Source of the DNA: Aminobacter niigataensis
GTDB taxonomy: Bacteria > Pseudomonadota > Alphaproteobacteria > Rhizobiales > Rhizobiaceae
NCBI RefSeq assembly: GCF_014200015.1
Contig: NZ_JACHOT010000003.1
Location: forward strand, 404,747 to 468,746
Length of the DNA: 64,000 nucleotides
Direction of reading: 5' to 3'
Under the pieces are notes generated by a model. It saw only the letters and a program-made list of their open reading frames with translations. It was not told the DNA's origin and did no database searches. Position numbers and translations under genes: made by a program. Below, piece by piece: positions 38,389-57,541 of this stretch (positions are counted from its first letter, which is position 1; every line of letters begins with the position of its first letter).

Positions 38389-38604
38389 CGCCATATCCCC
38401 CTGCCTAATTGGCTCGACAGAACAAGGCGCCAATCGTCATTGCAACCTAATGCGATCCACTAATATATATCTTGATATGTGATCTTTTCTCTTTTTTTCT
38501 TTTGGTAAACTGGCGGTGCATACCACAGTATGTAAAATTTTAGCATCCGAAGACTCAATTGATCAACGAACGGTTGCGGCGCCGGGCACCCGGCAGCGCC
38601 CGAA
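38389..38604 (-). promoter_or_regulatory. AT-rich upstream region of the giant adhesin gene
   Basis: This 216-bp gap is markedly AT-rich compared with its surroundings. It holds two perfect palindromes: ATATCTTGATAT at 38467-38478 (about 80 bp before the adhesin start) and TAAAATTTTA at 38533-38542. Either could be a regulator site. I cannot place a promoter with confidence. A short GC hairpin (GCCGGG-CAC-CCGGC, 38581-38594) follows the dehydrogenase gene without a T run. Confidence 0.45.
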
Positions 38605-39651
38605 CTAGATGAAATCGACGCCGAGCCGGGCAGCCTCGGCACGCAGTTTGTCGAATACGCCTTGATGAAGTGCGACACCCTGGACCAGTGCCTGGCGCTT
38701 GCGGCTGACGGCACTTTCGCCCGGCAAACGAACGCGCCCGACGCCTGGCCGGGGCGGGTTGTCGCGGCAGGCATCGGCCAGCCATCCGGTCTGATGCACG
38801 AAGGCCGCCTCGCCGGCAAAGGCGCTGGGGTCGATGACCTGCAGGAACACCGAGGCATTGGTGCCTTCCGGCTTGTCGGCGCGGCCGAAGCCGGCGAGCC
38901 CCTGGGTGAGGGCTTCGACCAGGATCGCCAGCGCGTAGCCCTTCTGGCCGTGGTCGAGGCCGCCGGCGGGCAGGATGGTGCCGCCGTCGTTCAACACATT
39001 AGGATCGTCGGTCGGATTGCCGTCGCGGTCGAGCAGCCACTGGTGATCGAATTTCCTGCCCTCGGCGATCAGTCGCGAGCTCATGTTGTTGGTGGTGATG
39101 GAGGCGCTGACGTCGATCAGGATCGGGTCGCCGTCGGTGGGGATGCCGGCGGCGATGGGATTGGGCGTGAAAACGCCGCGCGTGCCGCCGAAGGGGGCAA
39201 CCGAGGCGCCCGAAGGGCTGGAGCTTGCGAGCAGAGCCACATAGCCGCGATCGGTGGCGCGGGTGAGATAGGCGGCGAGGCAGCCGATATGATGGCTGTT
39301 GCCAATGGTCACGGTGACGGTGCCATAGGTGGCAGCACGCTCGACGGCGAGGTCCATGGCGGTGGCCGTCAGCCAGGCGCCGGGCAGGCGCAGTCCGTCC
39401 CAGGCAACGCAGGCGCCGCGGTCGGAAATCACCCGGGGCGCGCCTGATCTGGTCATGACGCCGTTGCGGATGCTTTCGAGATACCAAGGGGCGAGCGCCA
39501 GCCCGTGCGTCGTGTGGCCCATCAGGTCGGCCTCGACCAGGATCTCGGCCACCGCATGGGCCTTGCCAGGCTCGAGGCCCGCTGCCTTGAAGAGGGCAAA
39601 GGCGAGATCGGTCAGCGTATCGACGTCGTGGCGCCTGTCATCGGAGGCCAT
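38605..39651 (-). CDS. Malate/L-lactate (Ldh2/ComC-type) dehydrogenase family protein
   Basis: This NAD(P)-dependent oxidoreductase of 348 residues belongs to the Ldh2 family (malate/L-lactate, sulfolactate, ureidoglycolate, 2,3-diketogulonate dehydrogenases). The family generally acts on 2-hydroxy acids with S (L) configuration, with exceptions. Seen: GHTTHG at residues 45-50, the catalytic-histidine region GNSHHIG at 117-123, and the family stretch FTPNPIAAGIPT. The ATG at 39651 follows the stop of the D-2-hydroxyacid dehydrogenase gene by 2 bp, so the two are translated together. Such a pair can invert a 2-hydroxy acid through its keto acid, as described for sulfolactate dehydrogenases in Chromohalobacter. 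The substrate here is unknown. Confidence 0.85.
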   Translation of the reverse strand: MASDDRRHDVDTLTDLAFALFKAAGLEPGKAHAVAEILVEADLMGHTTHGLALAPWYLESIRNGVMTRSGAPRVISDRGACVAWDGLRLPGAWLTATAMDLAVERAATYGTVTVTIGNSHHIGCLAAYLTRATDRGYVALLASSSPSGASVAPFGGTRGVFTPNPIAAGIPTDGDPILIDVSASITTNNMSSRLIAEGRKFDHQWLLDRDGNPTDDPNVLNDGGTILPAGGLDHGQKGYALAILVEALTQGLAGFGRADKPEGTNASVFLQVIDPSAFAGEAAFVHQTGWLADACRDNPPRPGVGRVRLPGESAVSRKRQALVQGVALHQGVFDKLRAEAARLGVDFI

Positions 39652-39653
39652 GG

Positions 39654-40616
39654 TCAAACCCTTGCATGGAGGTTCTTGGCGAGCTGCTCGCCACGAAGGA
39701 AGGCAAGCACGTTGCCGGCGGTCATGATCGAGACGGCCCGGCGCGCATCTTCGGTGACGCCGGCGACATGCGGCGTCAGAATGAGGTTGGGCAACTGCCA
39801 CAGCGGGCTCTTGACCGGCGGCTCCTCGGCGAAGCTGTCGAGCCCGGCGCCGGCGATGCGGCCGCCTTGGAGTGCAGCGATAAGGGCCGGCTCGTCGACG
39901 ACCTCGCCGCGCGCGGTGTTGACGAGGTAGGCCGTGGGTTTCATCAGCGCGATCTCGCGCGCGCCGATCAGTCCGCGCGTGGCGTCGGTCAACGGACAGT
40001 GCAGGCTGACGACGTCACTTTCGCCAAGCAGGGCGTCGAGCGAGGTCGTGCGGCTGACGCCATCCGCAAAGGCCTCATCCGGCGCAAACGGATCGTAGGC
40101 CGAAACCTGCATGCCGATCGGAGCGGCCATGCGGGCGAGTATCTGGCCGATCAGGCCAAAGCCGACGAGACCGATCTTCTGGCCACGCAGCTCGCGCCCG
40201 GCATAGAGCTTCTTGTCCCACAGGCCGTTGCGGATATGGCTGTCCTGGCGCAGGAAATCCTTGGCCAGCGCCAGGATCAGCCCGAGGGCGTGCTCCGCGA
40301 CCGAGTGGGCGTTGGCGCCTGTCGCCATGATGACAGGGATGCCAAGCACCTTTGCCGCCGCGACGTCGATGTCATTGGTGCCGACGCCATGCTTGGCGAC
40401 GATTTTCAGATTGCGCGATGCGGCGAGCATGTCGGCATCGACCATCTCGACCAGCCGTATCACCAGCGCCGCAGGCTGGTGCCGTTCGATCAGCTCCAGC
40501 ACCTCGGATTTCCGGGGATAAGCCTCGGTCGAGATGCACTCGACCCCGGCATTTTCGAGCATGGCAAGGCCCTCGGCAGCCATGCGGCCGCCGACCGTAA
40601 CGATCGTCGTTGTCAT
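39654..40616 (-). CDS. D-isomer-specific 2-hydroxyacid dehydrogenase (SerA/SlcC-like)
   Basis: This NAD-dependent dehydrogenase of 320 residues is expected to interconvert a D (R) 2-hydroxy acid and its 2-keto acid. Seen: the Rossmann motif GFGLIG at residues 152-157 and the catalytic triad Arg236 (NTARGEVVD), Glu265 (SFAEEPP) and His283 (TPHVAGVT). The regulatory ACT domain of biosynthetic SerA is absent, so this is a catabolic member. It starts 50 bp after the GntR gene and is coupled to the Ldh2-type gene. Its stereospecificity is expected to be opposite to that partner. Confidence 0.88.
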   Translation of the reverse strand: MTTTIVTVGGRMAAEGLAMLENAGVECISTEAYPRKSEVLELIERHQPAALVIRLVEMVDADMLAASRNLKIVAKHGVGTNDIDVAAAKVLGIPVIMATGANAHSVAEHALGLILALAKDFLRQDSHIRNGLWDKKLYAGRELRGQKIGLVGFGLIGQILARMAAPIGMQVSAYDPFAPDEAFADGVSRTTSLDALLGESDVVSLHCPLTDATRGLIGAREIALMKPTAYLVNTARGEVVDEPALIAALQGGRIAGAGLDSFAEEPPVKSPLWQLPNLILTPHVAGVTEDARRAVSIMTAGNVLAFLRGEQLAKNLHARV

Positions 40617-40666
40617 CGTTCTTTCCTGTCGTGCCGCAAACGCGGCTGAAGTTCAGTCGACCGGGG

Positions 40667-41455
40667 TCAACGCGAGAGGTCGAGCACCTTGTTCTCGAAC
40701 AGGCGGTTGCGCGAGCCTTCGAGATGCTCGCGCATGCGGTCGCGCGCCAGCTCCGCCTCGCCTGCGGCGATGGCATCGCAGATGCCGCGATGCTCGTCAT
40801 AGACCTGTTCGAGCTTGGTCAGCGGTCCCATCAGGGACAGGCCGTGCAGGTTCATGCCGACGGCGATGTGCTGGCGCAGGGCGTCGAGGCAAGCGGTGTA
40901 ATAGTGATTGTTGGCGGCTTCCGCCACCGAACGATGAAACAGGAAATCGACATCGGAGCGGTGGGTCTGGTCGCGCGTCGCGTCGCGCAGCTCGGAAAGC
41001 GCTGCGCGCATCTTCTGCATCGCGGCGTCGTCGTGGCGAAGTGCTGCGAAATAAGCGGCCTCGGGCTCGATGGTCAGGCGGAACTCGTAGCAGCGCTGGA
41101 TGTCGGCGATGGTCTTGACCGGGGAGAAGCCGAGGTTGGTCTTCTGGGTGTCGAAGACGCGGACATAGGTGCCCGAGCCCTGGCGGGAATAGACGAGGCC
41201 GACGTCGCGCAGGCGGCCAAGCGCATCGCGCACCACCGGCCGGGAAACGCCAAGCAGCGTCGCCAGATCATGCTCGCCCGGAAGCTTGGAGCCCGACGGA
41301 AATTCGCCCGAGACGATGCGCTCCTGCAGCTGGTCGAACACCTTGTCGACCAGCTTGGGTGCCTTGGAGGCCCCCTTGGCGCTACCGTTGCCCGGCTTTT
41401 CGCCTGCCTCGGTCGCGTCCGGCTCTGTTCCGTCCTGCTGCAATTCGGTCGTCAT
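40667..41455 (-). CDS. GntR-family (FCD) regulator of the acid-sugar island
   Basis: This is a transcriptional regulator of 262 residues. Seen: a 35-residue polar Gly/Lys-rich leader, a winged helix (DQLQERIVSGEFPSGSKLPG, then VSRPVVRDALGRLRDVG) and an FCD ligand domain with RLTIEPEAA and FHRSVAEAANN. Its ATG overlaps the end of the kinase gene by 4 bp, so the regulator is made from the operon it probably controls. TGTACA-type sites in the 385-bp divergent promoter (48183-48567) are candidate operators. The likely ligand is the imported acid or a pathway intermediate. Confidence 0.88.
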   Translation of the reverse strand: MTTELQQDGTEPDATEAGEKPGNGSAKGASKAPKLVDKVFDQLQERIVSGEFPSGSKLPGEHDLATLLGVSRPVVRDALGRLRDVGLVYSRQGSGTYVRVFDTQKTNLGFSPVKTIADIQRCYEFRLTIEPEAAYFAALRHDDAAMQKMRAALSELRDATRDQTHRSDVDFLFHRSVAEAANNHYYTACLDALRQHIAVGMNLHGLSLMGPLTKLEQVYDEHRGICDAIAAGEAELARDRMREHLEGSRNRLFENKVLDLSR

Positions 41456-42528
41456 GTGTGTTCCGCCTGTTCCCGGCTCGGCGGTCGCAAGAGATCGGAA
41501 AGAACCGCGACCGTCCCGAATCCACCGGATTTTACGACACAGCGCAGCCCCTCGCCATGGCGTGTCGCGATGGTGAACCAGGGCAGGCCCGGCGCCACCT
41601 CGCCTTGCGGAAATAGCACGTCGGCGCCAAGCGCGCCAAGTATGGCCAGCGCCGTATCGCCGCCGCCCATGACCAGCGTCGACGGGCGAAGGCGCTCGAC
41701 GGCGTCGGCGACCTGCTCGGCGAAACGGGCGGCGATGCGACCCGGCTCCTCGACCATCTCGCCGGTGCAGCGCACGACCATTGGCAAGATCGTGTCATAG
41801 GGAAGCGCGAAGAGGCCATCGAGGGCGTCCGCGACGCCGGAATCGGGGTTGTCCTGAAGCAGTCGGGCCACTTGCTGGTCGGTGATGGGATCGCGCGAGC
41901 CGAAGGCAAACAGCACGTTCCGATCGCTTGTCGGCGCGGCGGTGGGCCTGAAGTTGGCGTGGAGACGGCGGGCGAAGGCGAGGCCCAGCCCCCTCGCCCC
42001 AACGGCAACGGCGTCGCTCCAATCGGTCTCGGCAACCACCCGGTCGAGTTCGGCGTCTGTCGCCGCATTGCGGACGGAAACGCGTCTGGTGGAGCCGGCA
42101 AATGCCGGCAGGATCGGCAGAGGCGTTTCGACGCCGCGGCCGACGACGGCGCCATCGCGCGTCGTGCGATCCTGGTCTGGAACCGCAGGTGCCACCACCA
42201 GCGCGTTGCGACCCGATGCTTCGGCCAGCGCGTCGGCTTCCGCGCCGACATTGCCCTTCAGGCGCGAGTCGATCTTCTTCATCACGATACCAGGGGCATG
42301 CGGCATCAACCGCTTGGCCATGTCGCGTACCCGGGCCGAGGCGACGTCGGCCGACAGCGCCCGCGAGGCGGTGCTGACGGCAAAGATGTCAGGCTCGCTG
42401 GCAAGCGCCTTGGCGGTCGCCTCCGGTATCATCGCCACCGCCACCTCGAGGCCCGACGCAACGAAGGGCGCCGACGTGTCGAGCGCTCCGGTCAGGTCGT
42501 CGGCGACGATGGCGAGCATCAGCGTCAT
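41452..42528 (-). CDS. Four-carbon acid-sugar kinase family protein (DUF1537)
   Basis: This family phosphorylates four-carbon acid sugars with ATP. D-threonate, L-threonate and D-erythronate kinases are characterised members. It has 358 residues, slightly short for the family (about 400-430). Seen: N-terminal ADDLTGALD at residues 9-17, the substrate-domain motif KKIDSRLKGN, and in the C-terminal nucleotide domain FAFGSRDPITDQQ and GGGDTALAILGALGAD. The ATG at 42528 overlaps the preceding ABC ATPase gene by 4 bp. A PdxA2-like dehydrogenase in the same island matches the known D-threonate pathway, in which the kinase product is oxidised and decarboxylated to dihydroxyacetone phosphate. The exact substrate is inferred. 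Confidence 0.87.
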   Translation of the reverse strand: MTLMLAIVADDLTGALDTSAPFVASGLEVAVAMIPEATAKALASEPDIFAVSTASRALSADVASARVRDMAKRLMPHAPGIVMKKIDSRLKGNVGAEADALAEASGRNALVVAPAVPDQDRTTRDGAVVGRGVETPLPILPAFAGSTRRVSVRNAATDAELDRVVAETDWSDAVAVGARGLGLAFARRLHANFRPTAAPTSDRNVLFAFGSRDPITDQQVARLLQDNPDSGVADALDGLFALPYDTILPMVVRCTGEMVEEPGRIAARFAEQVADAVERLRPSTLVMGGGDTALAILGALGADVLFPQGEVAPGLPWFTIATRHGEGLRCVVKSGGFGTVAVLSDLLRPPSREQAEHT

Positions 42529-43517
42529 CCCGCCGCCCCCACTTCGACGGCATGGCAGGCGACGTGGTGGCCGGGAACAACCTCGCGCCATTCGGGAACC
42601 ACCGCGCGGCACTTGTCCATGGCGATCGGGCAGCGCGTGTGGAAGCGGCAGCCGGCCGGCGGCGCCAGCGGGCTCGGCACGTCGCCGACGAGGATCTGCC
42701 GCTGACGCGTCTTTTCGAGTTCCGGGTCGGCCTCCGGCACTGCCGAAAGCAGCGCCCTGGTGTATGGGTGGAGCGGGTTGGAAAAGAGCTGTTCGCGCGT
42801 CGCGAGTTCCGCAAGACGGCCGAGATACATGACCCCGACGCGGTCGCTGATATGGCGCACGACAGCAAGGTCGTGGGCGATGAACAGATAGGTCAGCCCG
42901 TATTTTTCCTGCAGGTCGAGCAAAAGGTTGATGATCTGCGCCTGGACCGAGACGTCGAGGGCCGAAATCGCCTCGTCACAGACGATGAATTTCGGCTGGC
43001 AGGCGAGCGCGCGGGCAATCGCCACGCGCTGGCGCTGGCCGCCGGACAGCTCATGCGGATAGCGCGAGGCAAAGCGTGCGGGCAGCCCGACATCGGCCAG
43101 CAGACGTGTCACCTTTTCCGGCAATTCGGCCTTGGTGGCGAGCTTGTGGAACAGGATCGGCTCACCGACGACTTCGCCGATTGTCATGCGCGGGTTGAGT
43201 GTCGAATAGGGGTCCTGGAAGACGATCTGCAGTTCGCGGCGATAGGGCCGCATGCGCTTCTCGTCGAGCGAGACGATGTTCTCGCCCTGGAAGATGACTT
43301 TACCTGATGTGGCCTTCTGCAGGTTAAGCAAGGTGAAGCCGGTGGTCGACTTGCCACAGCCGGATTCGCCGACCAAGGAAAGCGTTTCGCCGGCGAAGAT
43401 GTCGAAGTTGACGTCGTCGACTGCGTGCACGGTGGCGCCGCGCTCGCCGAAGGCGCCGAGGCGGACGACGAAATGCTTGACGAGGTTCTCGACCTTGATC
43501 AGCGGTTCGGCAGCCAT
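42525..43517 (-). CDS. Opp/Dpp-type ABC transporter ATPase (OppF/DppF-like)
   Basis: This is the second ATPase of an oligopeptide-type importer, 330 residues. Seen: Walker [12 protein letters not shown], signature LSGGQRQRVAIARAL, Walker B FIVCDEAISALD, and the C-terminal Opp-type metal-binding extension GCRFHTRCP with paired cysteines. The ATG at 43517 has AAGGAGG at 7 bp and overlaps the stop of the first ATPase gene by one base. A GTG three bases earlier is possible. The Opp family carries peptides, nickel, oligosaccharides and glycoside conjugates. The surrounding sugar-acid enzymes point to a carbohydrate-like cargo. Confidence 0.92.
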   Translation of the reverse strand: MAAEPLIKVENLVKHFVVRLGAFGERGATVHAVDDVNFDIFAGETLSLVGESGCGKSTTGFTLLNLQKATSGKVIFQGENIVSLDEKRMRPYRRELQIVFQDPYSTLNPRMTIGEVVGEPILFHKLATKAELPEKVTRLLADVGLPARFASRYPHELSGGQRQRVAIARALACQPKFIVCDEAISALDVSVQAQIINLLLDLQEKYGLTYLFIAHDLAVVRHISDRVGVMYLGRLAELATREQLFSNPLHPYTRALLSAVPEADPELEKTRQRQILVGDVPSPLAPPAGCRFHTRCPIAMDKCRAVVPEWREVVPGHHVACHAVEVGAAG

Positions 43518-44527
43518 CACGCGGCCTCCTTCATCTGGCGCTGGGCGACAAAGCAGGCGACGCGGTGGCCGCTGGTGCCTGCGACCGACTCGAGCACCGG
43601 CACGCTCTCATGACAGACGCTTTCTGCCAGGGCGCATCGCGGCGCGAATGGGCAGCCCTTGGGGCGACGGCCCGGCTCGGGCGGCGTGCCGCCGATCGAC
43701 GACAGGCGGCTCGCCTGCTCGTCGGAGAGTTTCGGGATCGAGGCGAGCAAGCCGCGTGTGTAGGGATGGGTCGGGCGCGCGAAGAGTTCGCCGACCGGCG
43801 CGTCCTCGACCACGGTTCCGGCATAAAGCACGGCGACGCGGTCGACGAGGCCGGCGATCAGCGCGAGGTCGTGGGTGATCCACACCACCGACATGTTGAG
43901 CTTCTTGCGCAGGTCCTTCACCAGGTCAACGATCTGTGCCTGGATGGTGACGTCGAGTGCGGTCGTCGGCTCGTCGGCGATCAAAAGTTCCGGATCGCAG
44001 GCAAGGCCCATGGCGATCATCACGCGCTGGCGCATACCGCCGGACAGTTCGTGCGGATAGGCGGTGATGCGCTGCTCGGGGCCTGGGATACCGACCAGTC
44101 TCAGCAATTCAATGGCGCGCTTGCGGGCGTCGGCCTTGCTCATGTTGCGATGATAGATGAGCGGCTCGCAGAGCTGGTCGCCGATGCGCATCACCGGGTT
44201 GAGCGAGGTCATCGGATCCTGGAAGACAAAGCCGATCTTGCCACCGCGCACCTGGCGCAGCTCCGACTTCGACATCTTGAGGAGATCGCGGCCGGCGAAC
44301 TCGGCGGTGCCGCCCTTGACCTTGATCTTGTTGGGTAGCAGCCGCACCAGGGAGAGCATGGTCAGGCTCTTGCCGCAGCCGGACTCGCCGACGACGCCGA
44401 CGGTCTCGCCCTTGCCGACGGTCAAATTGATGCCGTCGACGATGATGGCCGGGCCACGGCGGGTTTCGATCTCGATGGTGAGGCCGCGCACGTCGAGCAG
44501 CGGCTTGTTGTCTGCGGGAGCGGTCAT
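43517..44527 (-). CDS. Opp/Dpp-type ABC transporter ATPase (OppD/DppD-like)
   Basis: This is the first ATPase of the importer, 336 residues. Seen: Walker [11 protein letters not shown], signature [16 protein letters not shown], Walker [14 protein letters not shown], and the Opp C-terminal cysteine motif GCPFAPRC. It overlaps the permease gene upstream by 4 bp and the second ATPase gene downstream by one base, so the transporter genes form one operon from 48182 downward. The substrate is not readable from the ATPase. Confidence 0.92.
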
Positions 44528-45489
44528 TTGCTGCCCCTCGGGTTGAGAGCGTCATTGAGGCCGTCGCCGAGGAAGGAGAAGGCGACGGTGGCGAGGCCGA
44601 GCACGGCTGCGGGTGCGGCGAGCAGATGCGGATAGTGCTGCCAGACGCGCAGGCCGTCGGAAATCATGTTGCCCCAGCTGGGCGTGGGTGGATTGACGCC
44701 GACGCCGAGGAAGGAGAATGCGCTTTCCAGAACCATCGCCGTTCCGAGGCCGGCGCTGACCGAGACGATCAGCGGGCCGATGGCGTTGGGAACGATGTAG
44801 CGTATCAGGATCAGGCGGTTGGTCAGGCCAAGCGCGCGCGCCGCCGTGACATAGGGCCGGCCGCGGATCGACAGTACCTGGGCACGGACGAGGCGGGCAT
44901 AGGGCGGCCAGCTGATCAGGGCCATCGAGCCGAACACCAGCAGGAAATCGACCCAGATGGTCTCGCGGTAGAACGGGTTGAGCGTCGCCTGGTAGCGCGC
45001 TTCCATCCAGGCGGTGAGCGGCGTCTTGAGCGAGGCATTGATGACGACGACCAGCAACAGGTTGGGCACCGACATGGTCATGTCCGTGAACCACATCACG
45101 ATGCGGTCGAAGAGGCCGCCGAAGTAGCCGGCCATGGCGCCGAGGGTGACGCCGATGACGACGGCGATCGTCGTCACGACGATCGCCACCACGAAGGCGG
45201 TGCGGGTGCCGTAGACGACGCGGGAGAAGACATCGCGGCCGAGATCGTCGGTGCCGAACAGATGTGCCAGCGACGGCGCCTGATTACGGGCGGCGAGGTC
45301 CTGGGTGAGGAAATCGTAGGGCGTCAGCCAGGGACCGAAGACGGCGACGAAGGCGAGCAGGATGACGACGGCGAGACCGGCGACCGCCAGCTTGTTGCGC
45401 AGCAGGCGGTGCCAGGCATCGCGCCACAGGCTGACGGGGGGCTCGTCGTCGGCCACGGTGGAGGAGAGATTGACGGGGGTCATCGTCAT
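44524..45489 (-). CDS. Opp/Dpp-type ABC transporter permease (OppC/DppC-like)
   Basis: This is an inner-membrane channel subunit of 321 residues. Seen: the OppC N-terminal pattern (WRDAWHRLLRNKLAVAGL, then HLFGTDDLGRDVFSRVVYG) and six membrane segments. The cytoplasmic EAA loop includes YVTAARALGLTNRLILIRYI, which docks the ATPases. The MTMTPVN start at 45489 lies 2 bp after the stop of the OppB-type gene. An unusual insert of about 30 residues (MEARYQATLNPFYRETIWVD) lies between membrane segments, as in some sugar-linked members of the family. Confidence 0.92.
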   Translation of the reverse strand: MTMTPVNLSSTVADDEPPVSLWRDAWHRLLRNKLAVAGLAVVILLAFVAVFGPWLTPYDFLTQDLAARNQAPSLAHLFGTDDLGRDVFSRVVYGTRTAFVVAIVVTTIAVVIGVTLGAMAGYFGGLFDRIVMWFTDMTMSVPNLLLVVVINASLKTPLTAWMEARYQATLNPFYRETIWVDFLLVFGSMALISWPPYARLVRAQVLSIRGRPYVTAARALGLTNRLILIRYIVPNAIGPLIVSVSAGLGTAMVLESAFSFLGVGVNPPTPSWGNMISDGLRVWQHYPHLLAAPAAVLGLATVAFSFLGDGLNDALNPRGSK

Positions 45490-45490
45490 G

Positions 45491-46447
45491 TCAGCGGCTC
45501 CTCATCGTGTCGTTGGCGCGCGGATCGAGCAGCGGATAGAGCACGTCGACCAGAAGGTTCGACAGCATCACCAGGAACGAGCCGATCAGCGTGATGGCGA
45601 GGATGACGGGATAATCGGAATTGGTCAGCGCCGAGACGGTGAGCCGGCCGAGGCCGGGAAGACCGAACACCAGCTCGACGAAGATGGCGCCGTTGACGAT
45701 AGTGATCATGATCAGGCCGAGCTGGGTGACGACGGGCGTCAGCACGGGCCTGAGGATGTGGCGGAACGCCACCACCATTTCGGGCACGCCCTTGGCGCGG
45801 GCAGTGCGGACGAAATCCTCCGACAGCACCTCGATGACGGCGGCGCGGGTCTGGCGCACGATCAGCGCGATCGGCTGGAAGGAAAGAACGAGCAGCGGCA
45901 GGATGATGCGTGCGTCAAAGATGCCGCCCCAGCCATAGGGAACGCTGCCACCGGGCAGGAAAAGGATCAAAAGCACCATCAGAAGCGGGCCGGCGACATA
46001 GGCCGGGATCGCCCACAGGAACAGCGCCGAGCCGAGGATCGCATAGTCGATCTTGGTGTTCTGGTTCATCGCCGCAATCATGCCAAGCGGAACGGCTACG
46101 ATGGCTGTCAGGATGACGGCGCAGAGGCCGAGCTTGAACGAGACCGGGGCCGCGGCCGAAACCATCGCCCACACCGAACGGCCCGAGGTCAGCGAATTGC
46201 CGAAATTGCCCTGGATCAGGTTGAGGATATAGCTGCCGAACTGGACGAGAAACGGCCGGTTGAGGCCGGCGGCATCGCGGATCGCCTCGATCTTCTCGGG
46301 ATTGTAGGCGACGTCGCCGGGGGCGCGCAGGAAGATCAGCTTGATCGGGTCGCCGGCGCCGAAATAGGCCATGGCATAGACGGCCAGCATGACCAGCAGA
46401 ACGGACGGGATCCACAGCAGCAGCCGTGTTGCAATATAACGCAGCAT
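45491..46447 (-). CDS. Opp/Dpp-type ABC transporter permease (OppB/DppB-like)
   Basis: This is the second channel subunit, 318 residues. Seen: the OppB N-terminus MLRYIATRLLLWIPSVLLVM, six membrane segments and the EAA loop DFVRTARAKGVPEMVVAFRH. I chose the ATG at 46447, because the longer open frame to 46561 runs through the intercistronic hairpin. GAGGAGC is not at the ideal place, so initiation may depend on flow from oppA. It is followed at once by the OppC-type gene. Confidence 0.92.
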   Translation of the reverse strand: MLRYIATRLLLWIPSVLLVMLAVYAMAYFGAGDPIKLIFLRAPGDVAYNPEKIEAIRDAAGLNRPFLVQFGSYILNLIQGNFGNSLTSGRSVWAMVSAAAPVSFKLGLCAVILTAIVAVPLGMIAAMNQNTKIDYAILGSALFLWAIPAYVAGPLLMVLLILFLPGGSVPYGWGGIFDARIILPLLVLSFQPIALIVRQTRAAVIEVLSEDFVRTARAKGVPEMVVAFRHILRPVLTPVVTQLGLIMITIVNGAIFVELVFGLPGLGRLTVSALTNSDYPVILAITLIGSFLVMLSNLLVDVLYPLLDPRANDTMRSR

Positions 46448-46493
46448 GGCGGGCGGCCTCCCACCGCTCGGTAAGTTCCAAAGAGGAGCATAA

Positions 46494-46514
46494 CACGGGG
46501 GCCGAGCCCCCGTG
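46494..46514 (-). other. Intercistronic hairpin between binding-protein and permease genes
   Basis: CACGGGGGC (46494-46502) pairs perfectly with GCCCCCGTG (46506-46514) around CGA, a very stable 9-bp stem. It lies 16 bp after the binding-protein stop and lacks a T run, so partial attenuation or mRNA stabilisation is more likely than full termination. Confidence 0.65.
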
Positions 46515-46529
46515 CGCTTCACCGGGGCA

Positions 46530-48182
46530 TCAGCCGACGGTGATTTCCCAAGGGGCGACAACCTGCCAGTCGAGGTTCTTGTCGATGCCCTTCACATTGG
46601 CATTGGCCCAACGCGACATCGCCTGCGCGTACCAGGGGATGAAGGTCCAGTCCTCGCGGAAGGTCTTCTGGGCTTCCTGGGCAAGGGCAATGCGCTGCGG
46701 GTCGTCCGCCGCCTTGCTAGCGGCTTCGGCCAGCAACTGGTCGACCTTGTCGTTCTTGTAGCCGCCGAGCTTGTTCTGGGCGTTGGACGAGGTCGAAGCG
46801 ATCGAGCCGGCGAGATAGCTCGCCGCATCGGGCACGCGGGTGCCGACGTCGTCGCGGAAGATCTGCACCGCGTTCTGGTCCGGACCGGCATAGGCGTCCT
46901 GCTGCGGCTTCATGTCGACGGCGGTGATGCCGAGATTCTGGCGCCACTGCTCGGCGATGAACTGGGCCGCCGCCTCGTTGGCCGGCGAAGAGATGCCAAC
47001 GAACAGGATCTTGGGCAGGCGCTCGGGGCCGCCATAGGTCGACTCGGCAAGCAGCTTCTTGGCGCCCTCCGGATCGTAGGGATAAGGCTCGAAGCCGGAA
47101 TTGTCGGCGCCGGGCACCGAGTTGAGGATCTGGTCGGTCTTCTTGTGCGGGCCGTCGGGGAACGAGGCCTTCATCAGTCCATCGCGGTCGACCGCCATGA
47201 TCAAGGCCTGGCGGACCTTGGGATCGTCCATCGGCGCGCGCTTGGAATTGAACCAGAAGTGCTGGCCGGTCGGGATGATCGGGCCGGCGGCGAAGTCGGC
47301 GCCGAGGTCCTGGACGATGGTCGAGGTGACGAGCTCGGTGTGGGCGTTGAATTCGCCCGACTTGAGCAGCGAAGTCGCCGTCACATTGTCCTCGATCGAG
47401 GTGATCTCGATGCGGGTGAGCTTGGGTTTCGGGCCGAAGAAATTCTCGTTGGGTTCGAACACCAGCTTGCCGCTGTCGATGTCGATGCTGGTCAGCTTAA
47501 ACGGGCCGGAATAGACCGCACCTGCATCCGGCGTGAACCAGTCCTGGATCTCGTTGCCGTCTTCGCCGCGCGACTGCGAGGCCTTGGTGATCGGCACGAT
47601 ATGGTTGGCGACGCGCATGAAATAAATCGGGTCGGCTTCGGTCAGCGTCACGACGACGGTGCCCTCATCAGGCGTGGCGACGCCCGAGATTTCGGTGGCG
47701 GTGCCGCCGGTCACCTCGGCGAAGCCAGCGACCTTGGCCAAGACTTGATCGGCGCGCTGGCTCTTGGTGCCGGGCATCGCAGCCACGTTCCACGAACCGG
47801 CGACGTCGCCCGAGGTGATCTTGCTGCCGTCGGAGAAGGTCGCCTTGGGATCGAGCTTGAAGGTCCAGGTCTTGGAGTCGGCCGAGCCTTCCCAACTCGC
47901 GAAGACGTAAGGGTGGATCTTGCCTTCGCTGTCGAAATACATCGGCGAGGCCCACCAGGCCGAGTTCCAGCGATAAGGCACGCCGCCGCCGCGCAGCGGC
48001 GACCAGTCCTGGTTGAAGGCAGGGTTGGCGACCTTCAGCACCTGACCTTCCTGCGCAAAGACGATCTTGGCATCGAGCCCGAGCAAGGTGAAGCCGACAG
48101 CACCGCCCAGGCCGAGCCTGAGCGCATCGCGGCGGGTCATCCCGGCGCGTGGCCGTGCAGTCTCGGAAATCCGTTTCGACAT
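46530..48182 (-). CDS. Tat-exported substrate-binding protein of Opp-type importer
   Basis: This is the periplasmic receptor of the importer, SBP_bac_5 (OppA/DppA) family, 550 residues. Seen: a twin-arginine signal (MTRRDALRLGLGG, residues 15-27, then a hydrophobic core ending VFAQ), so the protein probably folds in the cytoplasm before export. The SBP_bac_5 fold follows (YVFASWEGSADSKTWTFKLD and KVRQALIMAVDRDGLMKASF). The ATG at 48182 is preceded by GGGAGGA. It is the first gene of a nine-gene run reaching 38605. The ligand could be a sugar acid or conjugate handled by the enzymes of the island (inference). Confidence 0.9.
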   Translation of the reverse strand: MSKRISETARPRAGMTRRDALRLGLGGAVGFTLLGLDAKIVFAQEGQVLKVANPAFNQDWSPLRGGGVPYRWNSAWWASPMYFDSEGKIHPYVFASWEGSADSKTWTFKLDPKATFSDGSKITSGDVAGSWNVAAMPGTKSQRADQVLAKVAGFAEVTGGTATEISGVATPDEGTVVVTLTEADPIYFMRVANHIVPITKASQSRGEDGNEIQDWFTPDAGAVYSGPFKLTSIDIDSGKLVFEPNENFFGPKPKLTRIEITSIEDNVTATSLLKSGEFNAHTELVTSTIVQDLGADFAAGPIIPTGQHFWFNSKRAPMDDPKVRQALIMAVDRDGLMKASFPDGPHKKTDQILNSVPGADNSGFEPYPYDPEGAKKLLAESTYGGPERLPKILFVGISSPANEAAAQFIAEQWRQNLGITAVDMKPQQDAYAGPDQNAVQIFRDDVGTRVPDAASYLAGSIASTSSNAQNKLGGYKNDKVDQLLAEAASKAADDPQRIALAQEAQKTFREDWTFIPWYAQAMSRWANANVKGIDKNLDWQVVAPWEITVG

Positions 48183-48567
48183 GACATTCCTCCCGTGAAA
48201 TCCATGAACGGCGATGCTCTGGTCGGATGCAATGGCAGCAGACACGGAAGCGGCAACCGTGGCCGAACAAATGCCGCCATATTGTAAACATGTCAATTCA
48301 TTTTTTCAGATAGCGCGGCACGAAAATTAGCCCTCGGTGAAATGTACAATAAAATCTCTTTAGAAATCAATGTTGTACAGCACCATCAGATTCAAGCTGC
48401 GATCTGACATCGGAAAAAGCAACTTGACAACTTGCCTGCTTGCGATCAGTTTCCGACCATAAAGCCAAGTGCAGTTTGCGCCCCCGAGGGGCATGCGCTC
48501 GGGAGGATTCCAGCAAGCGGGGCGCCGAACGACCGGCACTGCCTGCGGACAAGACGGACAGGGAGCG
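48183..48567. promoter_or_regulatory. Divergent promoter region of the acid-sugar island with candidate GntR sites
   Basis: This 385-bp AT-richer gap separates the minus-strand importer run from the plus-strand pdxA2 run. It holds TGTACAAT at 48343-48350 and TTGTACAG at 48373-48380, centred 30 bp apart. It also holds the imperfect palindrome ATTGTAAACATGTCAAT at 48281-48297. All are the TGTACA/ACATGT type seen at FCD-GntR operators. No gene is evident in the gap. The region 48400-48567 downstream of the sites is the pdxA2 leader. Confidence 0.5.
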
Positions 48568-49557
48568 ATGGCGAGTTCTAGCCGCACGATTGGCATCACC
48601 ATGGGGGACCCCGCCGGGGTCGGCCCCGAGATCATCTGCAAGTCGCTGGCCGAAATGAATGCCGCCGACCGCGCCACCATGCGCGTCTTCGGCAATCGCG
48701 ACAGCCTGGAGGCGGCGGCAAGGATTGTCGGCGCGCCGCTGAAATTCGCCTTGGTCTCCGATGGAGCCGACACGGTGGCCGTCGAGCATGTCGCCATCGA
48801 GGGCGGCCCAATCGCCTTCGGCAAGATCGACACCCGTGCCGGCGACGCCTCGTTCCGCTTCATTGCGCGTGCGGTGGAGGCGGCGACCGCAGGCGAGATC
48901 GGCTGCATCGTCACCGCGCCGATCAACAAGGAAGCGCTGAACCTTGCCGGCCACCATTATGACGGCCACACCGGCATGCTGGCGCATCTCACCAATTCGC
49001 GCTCGTCCTGGATGCTGCTCGCCGCCGAACGCATGTCGGTGATCCACGTCTCGACGCATGTGTCGCTGCAAGAGGCGATCGCCCGGGTGAAGCCGGAGCG
49101 CATCCTCGAGACCATTCGTACCGGGTATCGCCATCTGCGCCGCATCGGCATTGAAAACCCGCGCATCGCGGTCGCCGGCCTCAACCCGCATTGTGGCGAG
49201 AACGGCCTGTTCGGCACCGAGGACGACGAGTTCATCGCTCCCGCAGTGGCCGCGGCCAAGGCCGAGGGCATCGACGCCTACGGTCCGGTTCCGCCCGACA
49301 CGGTCTTCCACCGCGCCTATTCGGGTGCCTTCGACCTCGTGGTCGCGCAGTATCACGACCAGGGTCACATCCCGATGAAGCTCGTCGCCTTCGACAGCGG
49401 GGTCAACATTTCGCTCGGCCTGCCCATCGACCGCACCTCGGTCGACCACGGCACCGCCTTCGACATTGCCGGGACCGGCAAGGCCAATCACGTCAACATG
49501 AACGCGGCGATCGCCTATGCGCGCAAGCTCGCCGGAACGCCTCGGGTGACCGCATGA
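48568..49557 (+). CDS. pdxA2: 4-phospho-D-threonate 3-dehydrogenase-like (PdxA2 family)
   Basis: This is a PdxA-family NAD-dependent metalloenzyme of 329 residues. PdxA acts in vitamin B6 synthesis, whereas the PdxA2 branch oxidises and decarboxylates 4-phospho-D-threonate to dihydroxyacetone phosphate. Seen: GDPAGVGPE at residues 13-21 and the metal-ligand histidines in [19 protein letters not shown] and [11 protein letters not shown]. The ATG at 48568 has AGGGAG before it. Two facts favour the catabolic branch: the DUF1537 kinase in the same island, and the 4-bp overlap with a DapA-family gene. Sequence alone does not fully exclude a biosynthetic PdxA. Confidence 0.85.
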
Positions 49558-50459
49558 CCAATTTCGCCATTTCCGGCGTCTTCTCCGCCGCCGCCACGCC
49601 GATCAATGCCGACCTTTCGCCCGACCACGGCCTGCTGGCTGCGCACTGCCAAAGGCTGCTCGACGAGGGCTGCCATGGTGTGGCGCTGCTCGGCACGACC
49701 GGCGAGGCCAATTCGTTCTCGCTCGGCGAGCGCAAGGCAATGCTGGAACGCGTCGTCAAGGCAGGCGTTGATGCCGACAAGCTGATGCCCGGCACCGGCG
49801 TCGCCGCCATCCCCGAAACCATCGAGCTGACCCGCCATGCGCTGTCGATCGGTATCGAGAAGGTCGTGATGCTACCGCCCTTCTACTACAAGGGCGTGTC
49901 CGATAGCGGGCTGTTCGACGCCTATGCCCGCATCCTCGAAGGCGTCGCCGACGACCGGCTCAAGGTCGTGCTCTACCATATCCCCCAGGTGTCGGGCATT
50001 CCGCTGTCAGTGGAACTCGTCGGCCGGCTGATCCAGGCCTTCCCGAAAACCGTCGTCGGCATCAAGGAATCCAAGGGCGATTTCGCCAACATGCAGGCGC
50101 TGGTGAAGGCCTATCCCGGCTTCGCGGTGTTCCCGGGCGCCGATCCGCTGATGCTGCCGCTTTTGCGCGAAGGCGGAGCGGGCTGCATCACGGCGACGTC
50201 CAACCTGATCGCGGATTCGCTGCGCACCGTGTTCGACAACCATGCCAACCCGACCGAACAGGCAAAGGTCGAGGCGGCGCAGGCGCGCATCAACGCCTGG
50301 CGCAACCTCTCCAACAGCTACGCCCAGATCCCGACCATCAAGGCGATGGTCGGCCTGAAGCATGGCGAGAAGGCATGGCAGCGGCTGCGGCCGCCGCTGG
50401 TCGGCTTGAGCGACGGCGAGATGGCAGAGCTGAAGCCGCAGCTCGAACAGCTGCCGTAA
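49554..50459 (+). CDS. DapA/NAL-family Schiff-base aldolase or lyase
   Basis: This is a class I aldolase-type TIM barrel of 301 residues, in the family that includes dihydrodipicolinate synthase, N-acetylneuraminate lyase and 2-keto-3-deoxy sugar-acid aldolases. Seen: GTTGE at residues 47-51 (pyruvate carboxylate site), Tyr141 in YHIP, and the Schiff-base Lys171 in GIKESKG. The ATG overlaps the pdxA2 stop by 4 bp (ATGA). In a catabolic island it more probably cleaves a 2-keto-3-deoxy acid to pyruvate and an aldehyde than makes lysine precursors. The iron-type alcohol dehydrogenase two genes on could then handle the aldehyde. Confidence 0.85.
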
Positions 50460-50469
50460 GGAGGTTTCG

Positions 50470-51675
50470 ATGACCACCAACGCGGCCCAAGCACAATCAT
50501 CCGCTGCAGTCATGACCCACGCGGATGTTGCCGCGCAGATGGACGGCAAGTTGCATCAGGTGTCTGTGGGACGCGCCGACGCGTTCCTGCCATCGCCGAC
50601 GGTGCAAAACCACGCCGCGAACCTCAGCCTGCTGCCCGACGGCACGCTCGCCTGCGTCTGGTTCGGCGGCACGATGGAAGGCATGGGCGACATCTCGGTC
50701 TACCTGTCGCGTCTGGCACCCGGTTCCGACACCTGGTCGGCACCGGAAAAGATGTCGGACGATGCGCAGAAATCAGAACAGAACCCACTGCTGTTCAACG
50801 CGCCCGACGGCAAGGTGTGCCTGCTCTACACCTCGCAGACCTCGGGCCACCAGGACGGCGCTATCGTCAAGCGACGCATCTCCGAGGATGGCGGCAAGAG
50901 CTTCGGCGAGGTGTCGGTGCTCTGCGACATCCCCGGGACCTTCGTACGCCAACCGATCATCATCAACGATCGCGGCGAGTGGCTGCTGCCGGTGTTCCGC
51001 TGCATCGGCCGACCGGGGACGCGCTGGAGCGGCGATGTCGACACCGCTGCCGTGCTCATCTCCACCGATGCCGGCACAAGCTGGACCATGCATGACGTGC
51101 CCGACAGCATCGGCGCCGTGCACATGAACATCGTGCCGCTCGGCGGTGACGAGATGGTAGCGCTTTACCGCAACCGCTTCTCCGAGCAGGTGCTGCGCAG
51201 CCGCTCGCATGACGGCGGCCGCCGTTGGAGCGCCCCTGAAACGACCGAGCTGCCCAACAATAATTCGTCGGTCCAGGCCGTGCAAACAGGCGATGGCCGC
51301 ATTGCCATCGTGTACAACCACGCCAATGCGTCGATGTCGGATGACCGGCGCCTTTCGCTCTATGACGAGATCGAGGGCGACGAGCCGGTCGCGACCGAGC
51401 CTGCTGCCGAGCCGGAGGGCCGCAAGGCCGTCTGGGGCGTGCCGCGCGCGCCGCTCAGCCTCGCCTTCTCGTCCGATGGCGGCGCAACCTTCGGCGAACG
51501 GATCGACCTCGAGACCGGCGATGGCTTCTGCCTGACCAACAATTCGAAGGACGGGCTGAACCGCGAGTTTTCCTACCCGTCGATCCTGGCGACTGACGAC
51601 GGCACGATCCACGTCGCCTTCACCTATTTCCGCCGCGCCATCAAATACGTCCGCCTCTCCCCGGCCGACAGCTGA
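50470..51675 (+). CDS. Sialidase-fold (BNR/Asp-box) protein without signal peptide
   Basis: This 401-residue protein is of the sialidase/neuraminidase-like six-bladed propeller superfamily. Seen: Asp-box-like repeats such as SEDGGKSFGE, STDAGTSWT, SHDGGRRWS and SSDGGATFGE, spaced through the protein, and an N-terminal NLSLLPDGTLACVWFGGTMEG. There is no signal peptide or anchor, so it acts in the cytosol on an imported compound. It starts 10 bp after the DapA-family gene with AAGGAGG upstream. Possible roles are hydrolysis or trans-elimination of a glycoside or ulosonic-acid conjugate. The family is catalytically diverse, and I cannot place the substrate. Confidence 0.78.
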   Translation: MTTNAAQAQSSAAVMTHADVAAQMDGKLHQVSVGRADAFLPSPTVQNHAANLSLLPDGTLACVWFGGTMEGMGDISVYLSRLAPGSDTWSAPEKMSDDAQKSEQNPLLFNAPDGKVCLLYTSQTSGHQDGAIVKRRISEDGGKSFGEVSVLCDIPGTFVRQPIIINDRGEWLLPVFRCIGRPGTRWSGDVDTAAVLISTDAGTSWTMHDVPDSIGAVHMNIVPLGGDEMVALYRNRFSEQVLRSRSHDGGRRWSAPETTELPNNNSSVQAVQTGDGRIAIVYNHANASMSDDRRLSLYDEIEGDEPVATEPAAEPEGRKAVWGVPRAPLSLAFSSDGGATFGERIDLETGDGFCLTNNSKDGLNREFSYPSILATDDGTIHVAFTYFRRAIKYVRLSPADS

Positions 51676-51715
51676 TGCCTGATCGCGGCGACCATATCCA
51701 GCAGGAGCATAGACG

Positions 51716-52846
51716 ATGACCGGTCTCAGCATGCCCATATCGATCGTTCGGCCTCCGGTCATCGAATTCGGTCCCGGCGTGGTTTCCCGGCTTGCCGGCT
51801 GGGTGAAGGCGCGCAACGCCAAGAAGGCACTCGTCGTCGCCGACGCCTTCAATGCCACGCGCGTGGCGACACTCGATCTCGGCATCGAAACGGTCGTCTT
51901 CGGCGAAGTGCGCCCTGAACCGGACCTGCCCAATCTCGAAAAAGTGCTGGAACTTGCCGCGCTGTCGCAAGCCGACCTGATCGTCGGTTTCGGCGGCGGC
52001 AGCGCGATGGATCTCGCCAAGCTCGTCTCGGTGATGGCCGGTAGCGGGCAGCGGCTGCAGGACATCGTCGGCGTCGGCAAGGCGGCCAAGCGCCGGGTCG
52101 CGCTCGCCCAGGTGCCGACGACGTCGGGCACCGGCAGCGAGGCCGGCATCCGCGCCCTGGTCACCGACCCGGAGACGCAAGCCAAGCTCGCCGTCGAAAG
52201 CATCGAGATGCTGGCCGACATCGCCATCGTCGACCCGGCGCTGACGATGACCGTGCCACCGGCCGTCACCGCCGCCACCGGCGTCGATGCCATGGCCCAT
52301 TGCGTCGAGGCCTACACCAACAAGAAGGCGCATCCGATGATTGACCTCTACGCGCTGGAAGGGGTGAAGCTGGTCGGCCGCTATCTCGCCCGCGCGGTCA
52401 AGGACGGCAGCAACGTCGAGGCCCGCGCCGGGCTGGCGCTCGCCTCGCTCTATGGCGGCTTCTGCCTGGGCCCGGTCAACACCGCCGGCGGCCATGCGCT
52501 CGCCTATCCGCTGGGCACGCGCTGGCACATCGCCCATGGTGCGGCCAACGCACTGATCTTCCCGCATGTGCTCGCCTTCAACCTGCCGGCGGCCTCGGAA
52601 AAGACCGGGCACATCCTATCAGCACTCGGCCTGCCAGAGGCGAATGCCGTGCAGGACGTGTTCGGGTCGACGCATGACTATTGCGCCTCGCTCGGCATCG
52701 AGATGAGGCTGTCCCAGCTCGGCGTGCCGGAGAACGACCTGGAGACGATGGCAGACGACGCCTTCGCCATCCGCCGTCTGCTCGACAACAACCCGCGCGA
52801 ACTGGCGCGAGGCGACATCCTGTCGATCTACCGGACAGCCTACTGA
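51716..52846 (+). CDS. Iron-containing alcohol dehydrogenase family protein
   Basis: This group III NAD(P)-dependent alcohol dehydrogenase has 376 residues. Seen: the nucleotide-binding GGGSAMD at residues 93-99, TTSGTGSE at 135-142, and the metal ligands Asp191, His195, His260 and His274. It is the last gene of the four-gene plus-strand run, 40 bp after the sialidase-fold gene. Members reduce aldehydes, oxidise hydroxy acids or process maleylacetate. Here reduction or oxidation of an aldehyde released by the DapA-family enzyme is the simplest idea (inference). It converges on a CoA-ligase gene with an 18-bp gap. Confidence 0.9.
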   Translation: MTGLSMPISIVRPPVIEFGPGVVSRLAGWVKARNAKKALVVADAFNATRVATLDLGIETVVFGEVRPEPDLPNLEKVLELAALSQADLIVGFGGGSAMDLAKLVSVMAGSGQRLQDIVGVGKAAKRRVALAQVPTTSGTGSEAGIRALVTDPETQAKLAVESIEMLADIAIVDPALTMTVPPAVTAATGVDAMAHCVEAYTNKKAHPMIDLYALEGVKLVGRYLARAVKDGSNVEARAGLALASLYGGFCLGPVNTAGGHALAYPLGTRWHIAHGAANALIFPHVLAFNLPAASEKTGHILSALGLPEANAVQDVFGSTHDYCASLGIEMRLSQLGVPENDLETMADDAFAIRRLLDNNPRELARGDILSIYRTAY

Positions 52847-57537: not shown

Positions 57538-57541
57538 GGTG

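What the first reader, a model, noticed from the sequence alone, without database searches (positions are those of the whole stretch)
38605..52846. Thirteen-gene island for an unknown acid-sugar or conjugate: candidate undescribed pathway
A DUF1537 kinase plus PdxA2 would suffice for D-threonate, but the island adds a DapA-family lyase, a cytosolic sialidase-fold protein, an iron-type alcohol dehydrogenase, two 2-hydroxyacid dehydrogenases and an Opp-type importer. I know of no described pathway with this set. A model: the importer brings in a glycoside or ulosonic-acid-like conjugate, the propeller enzyme releases the parts, the lyase gives pyruvate plus an aldehyde processed by the alcohol dehydrogenase, and the C4 acid is epimerised, phosphorylated and turned into dihydroxyacetone phosphate.
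Basis: inference. Interest (0 to 1): 0.72.

Follow-up and report, generated by a model that had tools for sequence, protein, structure and literature searches.

The report
Pathway for eating pectin's C7 sugar
A block of genes that stays together in many root-associated bacteria is predicted to break a rare seven-carbon acid sugar, likely the Dha of plant pectin, down to pyruvate and a glycolysis intermediate, which would be a food route that I found no description of.

Summary
The thirteen genes are real. Eleven form a conserved unit: DapA-family lyase, sialidase-fold protein, iron ADH, PdxA2, DUF1537 kinase, FCD-GntR regulator and a five-gene Opp importer. All five enzymes lie together in 73 of 80 related loci; flanking genes do not follow. 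One 15-bp site between the two strand runs recurs in 72 of 72 promoter regions. The two 2-hydroxyacid dehydrogenases are an add-on (18 and 17 of 80) that elsewhere occurs without the sialidase-fold protein and with its own importer. Most likely chemistry: the lyase splits a C7 2-keto-3-deoxy diacid into pyruvate and D-threuronate; the ADH reduces this to D-threonate; kinase plus PdxA2 (fused in Cupriavidus) give DHAP and CO2. In Pantoea vagans the matching kinase and PdxA pass curated D-threonate cut-offs. The natural C7 acid that fits is Dha of rhamnogalacturonan II. In one plasmid the core lies beside pectinases and a homologue of half of 5mqr, recalled to be BT_1020, the Dha side-chain enzyme. 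The sialidase-fold protein has the GH33 fold but His at the catalytic Glu position. Substrate, sialidase-fold chemistry and the add-on's role are untested. No paper on Dha breakdown after release was found.

The parts
38605..39801 (-). Ldh_2 family (L-type) 2-hydroxyacid dehydrogenase; add-on module; true start probably later (match begins at residue 60)
   Evidence: PF02615 E 2.7e-86; in 17 of 80 loci
39654..40616 (-). D-isomer-specific 2-hydroxyacid dehydrogenase; add-on module
   Evidence: PF02826/PF00389; in 18 of 80 loci
40667..41455 (-). FCD/GntR regulator
   Evidence: PF07729, PF00392
41452..42528 (-). DUF1537 four-carbon acid sugar kinase, likely D-threonate kinase
   Evidence: PF07005/PF17042; best PDB 4xfm, 4xfr; best NCBIfam model D-threonate kinase, below cut-off
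42525..43520 (-). Opp-type importer ATPase
   Evidence: PF00005 + PF08352
43517..44527 (-). Opp-type importer ATPase
   Evidence: PF00005 + PF08352
44524..45489 (-). Opp-type importer permease (OppC)
   Evidence: PF00528 + PF12911
45491..46561 (-). Opp-type importer permease (OppB)
   Evidence: PF00528 + PF19300
46530..48182 (-). Solute-binding protein, family 5, Tat-like signal (TRRDALRLGLGG)
   Evidence: PF00496; translation
48282..48296 (.). Predicted operator TTGTAAACATGTCAA between the divergent runs
   Evidence: consensus TTGTAAANATGTCAA within 2 mismatches in 72 of 72 regions, 1 of 360 shuffles; only site with up to 3 mismatches in the 64-kb window
48568..49557 (+). PdxA2-type dehydrogenase, likely D-threonate 4-phosphate dehydrogenase
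   Evidence: PF04166; best PDB 2hi1 and 6e85; a second PdxA, 41% identical, elsewhere in the genome
49554..50459 (+). DapA-family pyruvate lyase (type I)
   Evidence: PF00701; Lys171 and Tyr141 invariant in 14 aligned sequences; four other DapA-family genes in the genome
50470..51675 (+). Cytosolic sialidase-fold (BNR_2) protein
51716..52846 (+). Iron-type alcohol dehydrogenase, likely aldehyde reductase
   Evidence: PF00465 + PF25137; D191, H195, H260, H274 invariant in 13 aligned sequences

Best explanation
The island is a conserved catabolic unit that is predicted to take up and degrade a C7 2-keto-3-deoxy diacid, likely Dha (3-deoxy-D-lyxo-2-heptulosarate) of pectin RG-II: the DapA-family lyase would cut it into pyruvate and D-threuronate, the iron ADH would reduce that aldehyde to D-threonate, and the DUF1537 kinase and PdxA2 would convert D-threonate via its 4-phosphate to DHAP and CO2. 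Shown: gene families, co-inheritance, and one shared conserved site in the divergent promoter. Inferred: every substrate and reaction order. The sialidase-fold protein would prepare the imported compound for the lyase, by cleaving a ketoside or by opening the ring; it keeps the fold but not the classic catalytic Glu, so an ordinary retaining sialidase reaction is unlikely. The two hydroxyacid dehydrogenases would feed a second, related 2-hydroxy acid into the same lyase. NADH used by the ADH would be regained by PdxA2; one ATP would be spent.
For: Co-inheritance: 73 of 80 loci hold all five enzymes. The enzymes recur with wholly different importers (annotation plus probe matches): Opp (rhizobia), sodium:solute symporter (L139, L140, L141, L145), ABC (Azospirillum), tripartite tricarboxylate transporter, MFS (P. 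vagans). D-threonate branch: P. vagans kinase 520 bits against cut-off 450, PdxA 658 against 583; P. stewartii PdxA 659; in Cupriavidus KK10 kinase and PdxA are one 775-residue protein inside the cluster. Lyase then ADH: two DapA subfamilies (type II 21-27% identical to the window's) fill the same slot; in type II the Arg that aligns with the Arg of E. coli DapA YNVPSRT is kept in 6 of 7 members of that alignment, Lys in the seventh, while NanA has Leu; this Arg (R138) is recalled to bind the carboxylate of aspartate semialdehyde, a C4 aldehyde-acid like D-threuronate. Stereochemistry (worked out by hand): C5 and C6 of D-lyxo Dha become exactly D-threonate. RG-II context: in Croceibacterium the core lies among pectinesterases, GH28, GH95 and an annotated pectate lyase and near a protein matching 5mqr residues 618-1096, E 6.5e-147. 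That 5mqr is BT_1020, the bimodular RG-II enzyme, is recalled; a paper passage describes that B. thetaiotaomicron enzyme as beta-L-arabinofuranosidase plus Dha hydrolase (PMC6811678, passages). That core also encodes a sialidase-like domain. In plants Dha is known only from RG-II (PMC12168206, passages). Plant cue: in R. leguminosarum 3841 pdxA2 is pRL90097 (PMC7105596, passage); [quoted passage not shown]
Against: Window kinase (132.8 bits against 450) and PdxA (340 against 583) miss the D-threonate cut-offs. The window's DapA is type I and lacks the Arg. The pectin context is a single locus; the 5mqr-type protein was found in 0 of 385 Alphaproteobacteria searched, and the two Bacteroidota loci with that protein gave no DapA, ADH or PdxA match. 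The core is not always whole: no kinase was matched near PdxA in P. stewartii L009 and in L137, no kinase or PdxA in Roseomonas L010, and P. agglomerans L004 holds the symporter, sialidase-fold, YhcH and SDR genes with none of the core in 19 kb. The window's own genome has no GH28, so Dha would have to come from other degraders. The role of HacidDH/Ldh_2 does not follow from Dha. pRL90101 is assigned by gene order, not by a printed tag.
Confidence: 0.52

Rival explanations
1. Same core chemistry, but the substrate is another C7 acid (an isomer of Dha, a heptarate or a 3-deoxyheptarate), with the sialidase-fold protein acting as a lyase, lactonase or dehydratase and the hydroxyacid dehydrogenases oxidising a 2-hydroxy acid.
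For: Importers for small acids (Tct, MFS) and HacidDH stand in clusters where no sialidase-fold gene was matched; His rather than Glu in the propeller active site; SMP-30 lactonase-like gene beside the ADH in Roseomonas.
Against: No natural source of such acids is known to me; the one informative context is pectin.
Confidence: 0.25
2. A neutral C7 ulosonate is split to pyruvate and D-threose, which the ADH oxidises to D-threonate.
For: D-threose to D-threono-lactone to D-threonate is known chemistry (PMC10079672, passages).
Against: The closest solved Fe-ADHs are named methanol, propanediol and lactaldehyde enzymes, which act between alcohol and aldehyde; Tct importers suit diacids; the conserved Arg in type II DapA suits a carboxylate on the aldehyde.
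Confidence: 0.08
3. The island degrades an imported glycoside or conjugate of which D-threonate (or erythronate) and an acid sugar are separate parts.
For: Opp importer and sialidase-fold protein; Opp-type (PepT) systems can carry oligosaccharides (PMC3333776, passages).
Against: The core persists with importers of small acids and without a matched propeller gene, so both halves probably come from one small molecule.
Confidence: 0.1
4. A sialic acid or other nonulosonic acid pathway.
For: Sialidase fold, DapA/NanA superfamily, NanR-like regulator score below cut-off, YhcH family gene in Pantoea.
Against: No NanE- or NanK-like gene among the thirteen; the product of NanA is an amino sugar, which leaves ADH, kinase and PdxA2 without work.
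Confidence: 0.03

Closest known systems
D-threonate pathway (DtnK kinase + PdxA2 / D-threonate 4-phosphate dehydrogenase)
   Same: Both genes present in the unit; the P. vagans version of this cluster passes the curated models
   Different: Here joined to a lyase, an ADH and a sialidase-fold protein that would make D-threonate inside the cell; the window proteins fall below the cut-offs
RG-II degradation in Bacteroides (GH143 Dha hydrolase; recalled as BT_1020, PDB 5mqr)
   Same: One relative of the core is near a homologue of the (alpha/alpha)-half of 5mqr among pectinases
   Different: That system, in the passages seen, describes release of Dha; I found no description of what follows
GH33 exo-sialidases
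   Different: 12-18% identity in the listed rows; His218 at the catalytic Glu; His48 where the RIP-motif Arg is expected (motif reading); no signal peptide seen in the window protein
Sialic acid (nan) catabolism
   Same: Pyruvate lyase of the DapA/NanA superfamily; YhcH family protein in Pantoea
   Different: No amino-sugar enzymes; C4 acid branch instead
DUF1537 + RuBisCO-like route (recalled as D-apionate catabolism)
   Same: DUF1537 kinase; such a pair is annotated in the Rufibacter pectin locus
   Different: Partner is a RuBisCO-like protein, not PdxA2

Membership tests
D-threonate pathway (DtnK + PdxA2) | Kinase over NF047819 cut-off (450 bits) | tested here: not met
   Window kinase 132.8 bits; P. 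vagans kinase of a matching cluster 520.4
D-threonate pathway (DtnK + PdxA2) | PdxA over PRK03371 cut-off (583 bits) | tested here: not met
   Window 340.2; P. vagans 658.3, P. stewartii 658.8
D-threonate pathway (DtnK + PdxA2) | PdxA closer to PdxA2 / D-threonate 4-phosphate dehydrogenase than to biosynthetic PdxA | tested here: met
   2hi1 (named PdxA 2) 311 and 6e85 305 bits against 1ps7/1ps6 PdxA about 183; second PdxA in the genome
D-threonate pathway (DtnK + PdxA2) | Activity on D-threonate | not testable with these tools
   needs assay
DapA-family pyruvate lyases | Schiff-base Lys and catalytic Tyr | tested here: met
   K171 and Y141 invariant with E. coli DapA and NanA aligned
DapA-family lyases acting on an aldehyde-acid | Arg at the E. 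coli DapA R138 position | tested here: not met
   Window type I has Val; type II has Arg in 6 of 7, Lys in one
GH33 sialidase | Sialidase six-bladed propeller fold | tested here: met
GH33 sialidase | Glu of the Tyr/Glu pair | tested here: not met
   His218 aligns with it against two sialidase types; invariant in 34 sequences; which residue is the catalytic Glu there is recalled
GH33 sialidase | Three active-site Arg and the Tyr | tested here: inconclusive
   Arg234 aligned; R326, Y369 and H48 (for the first Arg) placed by motif only
GH143 Dha hydrolase | Homology to the 5mqr propeller | tested here: inconclusive
   5mqr only at E 0.027 over 61 profile positions
Iron-type ADH | Four metal ligands (D, H, H, H) | tested here: met
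   D191, H195, H260, H274 invariant in 13
Opp/Dpp importer | SBP_bac_5, two permeases, two ATPases | tested here: met
Opp/Dpp importer | Peptide as solute | not testable with these tools
   best PDB hits are peptide binders, with agrocinopine-type binders and AgaA lower in the list
nan sialic acid pathway | NanE and NanK beside the lyase | tested here: not met
   none among the thirteen

The most novel reading that the evidence does not exclude
This is the bacterial pathway for Dha, the C7 acid sugar of rhamnogalacturonan II: lyase, ADH, D-threonate kinase and PdxA2 turn it into pyruvate, DHAP and CO2. It is spread over alpha- and gamma-proteobacteria (and a Cupriavidus) with interchangeable importers, and it uses a His-type sialidase-fold enzyme with a new reaction. 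It would also explain where intracellular D-threonate comes from.
Probability: 0.42. Interest if true: 0.8.

Novelty: new variant of a known kind. Interest (0 to 1): 0.66.

Why it matters
Dha sits in the pectin of vascular plants, and what bacteria do with it after release appears undescribed in the papers I could search. If right, a widespread accessory operon of root symbionts gets a substrate, D-threonate kinases get a physiological source, and many 'exo-alpha-sialidase' names in rhizobia, Pantoea and Klebsiella would be misleading. It is directly testable with a handful of purified enzymes and deletions in laboratory rhizobia.

Tried and rejected
Chance or mis-called ORFs: rejected. Sialic acid pathway: no NanE/NanK. 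D-threonate alone as imported substrate: does not explain the lyase and the ADH. D-apiose genes in the Croceibacterium locus (split transketolase plus FGGY kinase): suggested from memory, not confirmed by NCBIfam, so not used. 5mqr-type protein in Alphaproteobacteria: 0 of 385, with no positive control in that draw. GWAS hits in S. meliloti for a 'four-carbon acid sugar kinase' and a DapA-family protein (PMC12904279, passages): not shown to be these genes. Residue map by structure: model coordinates were not at hand, so the GH33 map beyond the HMMER alignments rests on motif reading. The best 50 VIA rows are sialidases (one row, 4j9t, is titled a designed metalloprotein); GH143 was not among them, which excludes nothing. 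No paper on Dha catabolism after release was found in the search listings (CC-licensed PMC only; one search listed 20 of 27 papers, 20 of 51, 10 of 12, 8 of 752). Zhang et al. 2016 on DUF1537 is not held and is known here from recall and a reference list. Functions of DapA R138, the GH33 catalytic residues, the identity of 5mqr with BT_1020 and of DUF1537 + RuBisCO-like genes with D-apionate catabolism are recalled; two papers searched for BT1020 do not name it.
Full report
OBSERVATION. The window lies in a 5.28-Mb genome whose best named relatives are Aminobacter. Likely kinase, PdxA and DapA starts agree with relatives' gene lengths and give the short overlaps typical of operons.

THE UNIT. 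With the window proteins as probes: BNR 80, PdxA 79, DapA 77, Fe-ADH 77, Opp ATPases 76, GntR 74, OppB and binding protein 74, OppC 73, kinase 72, HacidDH 18, Ldh_2 17 of 80. With divergent probes added, all five enzymes occur together in 73 of 80. The seven exceptions lack the kinase (L049, L084, L085, L086, L089), the Fe-ADH (L018, L049) or PdxA, DapA and Fe-ADH (L088) in the stretch held. In L084 a piece of the kinase lies at the very edge, and in L085, L086 and L089 the regulator lies within 0.4 kb of the edge, so those four are probably cut, not missing. Five flanking window genes served as a control: one appeared, in one of 80 loci. The sample is skewed to Rhizobiaceae, so these are not independent events. 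Within the genus 6 of 10 genomes hold the BNR gene, so the unit is accessory. It lies on plasmids in Aminobacter SR38, R. etli and R. leguminosarum.

ONE REGULON. Between the two runs lies TTGTAAACATGTCAA (48282-48296). The consensus TTGTAAANATGTCAA occurs with 0, 1 or 2 mismatches in 42, 23 and 7 of 72 such regions, and within 2 mismatches in 1 of 360 mononucleotide shuffles; it is the only site with up to three mismatches in the window. Shared ancestry of these regions inflates the contrast. It is a candidate site for the FCD-GntR protein.

MODULES. Outside the rhizobial type the enzymes are mostly kept and the rest changes (annotation, with probe matches). Sialidase-fold protein with sodium:solute symporter and SDR (and a YhcH family gene in the first three): L139, L140, P. 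stewartii L009 and L145 (Cupriavidus). With an ABC importer and SDR: Azospirillum. With other Opp systems: Agrobacterium, S. meliloti, Qingshengfaniella. With HacidDH (sometimes Ldh_2), a tripartite tricarboxylate transporter and no matched sialidase-fold gene: Chelatococcus, Roseinatronobacter, Rhizobium TCK, Salipiger, Roseivivax. With HacidDH and MFS: P. vagans and L138. L141 matches both modules with both importers, and Pararhizobium has sialidase-fold plus HacidDH and Ldh_2, as the window does. Results against a fixed core: no kinase match in L009 and L137; neither kinase nor PdxA in Roseomonas L010; in P. agglomerans L004 the symporter, sialidase-fold, YhcH and SDR genes stand without any core gene in 19 kb; L134 shows Fe-ADH, symporter and sialidase-fold gene near a contig start, with only a weak DapA match (29%) and no kinase or PdxA. 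So two entry modules appear to feed one core (inference), and the parts can be separated.

THE C4 BRANCH. The window PdxA is closest to PdxA2 (2hi1) and D-threonate 4-phosphate dehydrogenase (6e85); a second PdxA sits elsewhere in the genome. The kinase is the only DUF1537 gene found in the genome and is closest to 4xfm and 4xfr. Neither window protein passes the curated D-threonate models, but the P. vagans pair does and the P. stewartii PdxA does. In Cupriavidus KK10 one 775-residue protein carries both kinase domains (11-226, 259-413) and PdxA (473-763) between Fe-ADH and the sialidase-fold gene, so the two steps are probably successive. D-threonate kinase plus the 4-phosphate dehydrogenase give DHAP (PMC10079672, passages). 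PdxA2 is a known relative used in organic acid catabolism (PMC9997740, passages).

LYASE AND ADH. The DapA slot is filled by two subfamilies: type I (window, Rhizobium, Devosia, Croceibacterium and others; 47-69% identical to the window's) and type II (Agrobacterium, Azospirillum, Pantoea, Chelatococcus and others; 21-27%). That two branches of one superfamily serve the same partners argues that the slot is a pyruvate lyase. Type II keeps the Arg of the E. coli DapA YNVPSRT motif in 6 of 7 aligned members, Lys in the seventh (L145); NanA has Leu and the window has Val. The Fe-ADH has all four metal ligands in 13 of 13. Reduction of the lyase's aldehyde product gives the CH2OH that the kinase would phosphorylate, so DapA, ADH, kinase and PdxA2 line up as one linear route from a C7 diacid to pyruvate, DHAP and CO2 (inference).

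WHY DHA. Working backwards from D-threonate through reduction and aldol cleavage gives a 3-deoxy-hept-2-ulosarate whose C5 and C6 have the configuration of the D-lyxo isomer; that isomer is Dha, in plants known only from RG-II (PMC12168206, passages). C4 is not fixed by this argument. Independent context: on the Croceibacterium plasmid NZ_CP156083 the core lies within a 50-kb stretch with two pectinesterase, two GH28-type, one GH95 and one 'pectate lyase' gene (Pfam gave no lyase domain for the last) and TonB receptors. A 522-residue protein two genes from the core's regulator matches 5mqr residues 618-1096 with 494 bits. I recall 5mqr as BT_1020, the bimodular enzyme; the passages describe a B. 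thetaiotaomicron enzyme with a beta-L-arabinofuranosidase site and a Dha-hydrolase site on a five-bladed sialidase-like propeller, without naming it (PMC6811678, passages); another passage puts Araf at the end of an RG-II disaccharide side chain of this kind (PMC12282258, passage). Pfam places the matched half with (alpha/alpha)-type glycosidases, so it is the arabinofuranosidase half (inference). Within the core a 797-residue protein with a Sec-like start carries a sialidase-like domain related to the window's (hhalign probability 97.4%). The kinase and DapA of this core have their best plasmid matches in clusters of this kind or in related species (kinase 41% to Chelatococcus, about 40% to rhizobia; DapA about 50% to Rhizobium). 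It is one locus; 385 Alphaproteobacteria gave no further 5mqr-type protein, and the two Bacteroidota loci that have one gave no match to DapA, ADH or PdxA.

PLANT CUE. In R. leguminosarum 3841 the cluster is on pRL9. pdxA2 is pRL90097 (PMC7105596, passage); [quoted passage not shown]

OPEN. Substrate; reaction of the sialidase-fold protein; role of HacidDH/Ldh_2; solute of the Opp importer; how a genome without GH28 obtains Dha (probably from other degraders).

Noticed in passing
window 25519-38433, minus: A 4304-residue open frame with nine DUF5801 repeats, a Big_9 domain and an RTX calcium-binding motif: a giant surface or secreted repeat protein next to the island.
   Followed up: no
window 52865-61508, minus: AMP-dependent CoA ligase of PaaK type, branched-chain-amino-acid-type ABC importer genes, a second AMP ligase and a Crp-type regulator at 61613-62347: looks like an uptake and CoA-activation operon for a carboxylic acid.
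   Followed up: no
L145 (Cupriavidus sp. KK10 plasmid NZ_CP073678) 11109-13436: DUF1537 kinase and PdxA fused in one 775-residue protein inside the same kind of cluster.
   Followed up: partly
L150 (Rufibacter tibetensis plasmid NZ_CP012644): Pectin locus with a 5mqr-half homologue, a sialidase-family gene, GH28, pectinesterase, and a DUF1537 kinase beside a RuBisCO-like protein: another DUF1537 route in a pectin setting.
   Followed up: partly
L151 (Bacteroides finegoldii plasmid NZ_OY725969): A plasmid record with GH140, GH78, GH28, GH43, a lyase and a 5mqr-like protein, so RG-II-type loci may be mobile.
   Followed up: no
Klebsiella, Kosakonia, Yersinia, Aeromonas proteins among P0127-P0246: The 120 listed relatives (77-100% to the Pantoea protein) are, where named, called exo-alpha-sialidase, sialidase family, neuraminidase or glycosyl hydrolase; the active-site finding suggests that such names mislead.
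   Followed up: partly
L088 (Methylobrevis pamukkalensis): Regulator, kinase, Opp importer and sialidase-fold gene without PdxA, DapA or Fe-ADH in the 19.6 kb held.
   Followed up: no
L004 (Pantoea agglomerans plasmid NZ_CP083808): Symporter, sialidase-fold, YhcH and SDR genes beside each other without the core: the entry module can travel alone.
   Followed up: partly
L149 26432-28825 (L011 6590-8983): A sialidase-like domain fused to a formylglycine-generating-enzyme-like domain, with a Sec-like start, inside the core.
   Followed up: partly
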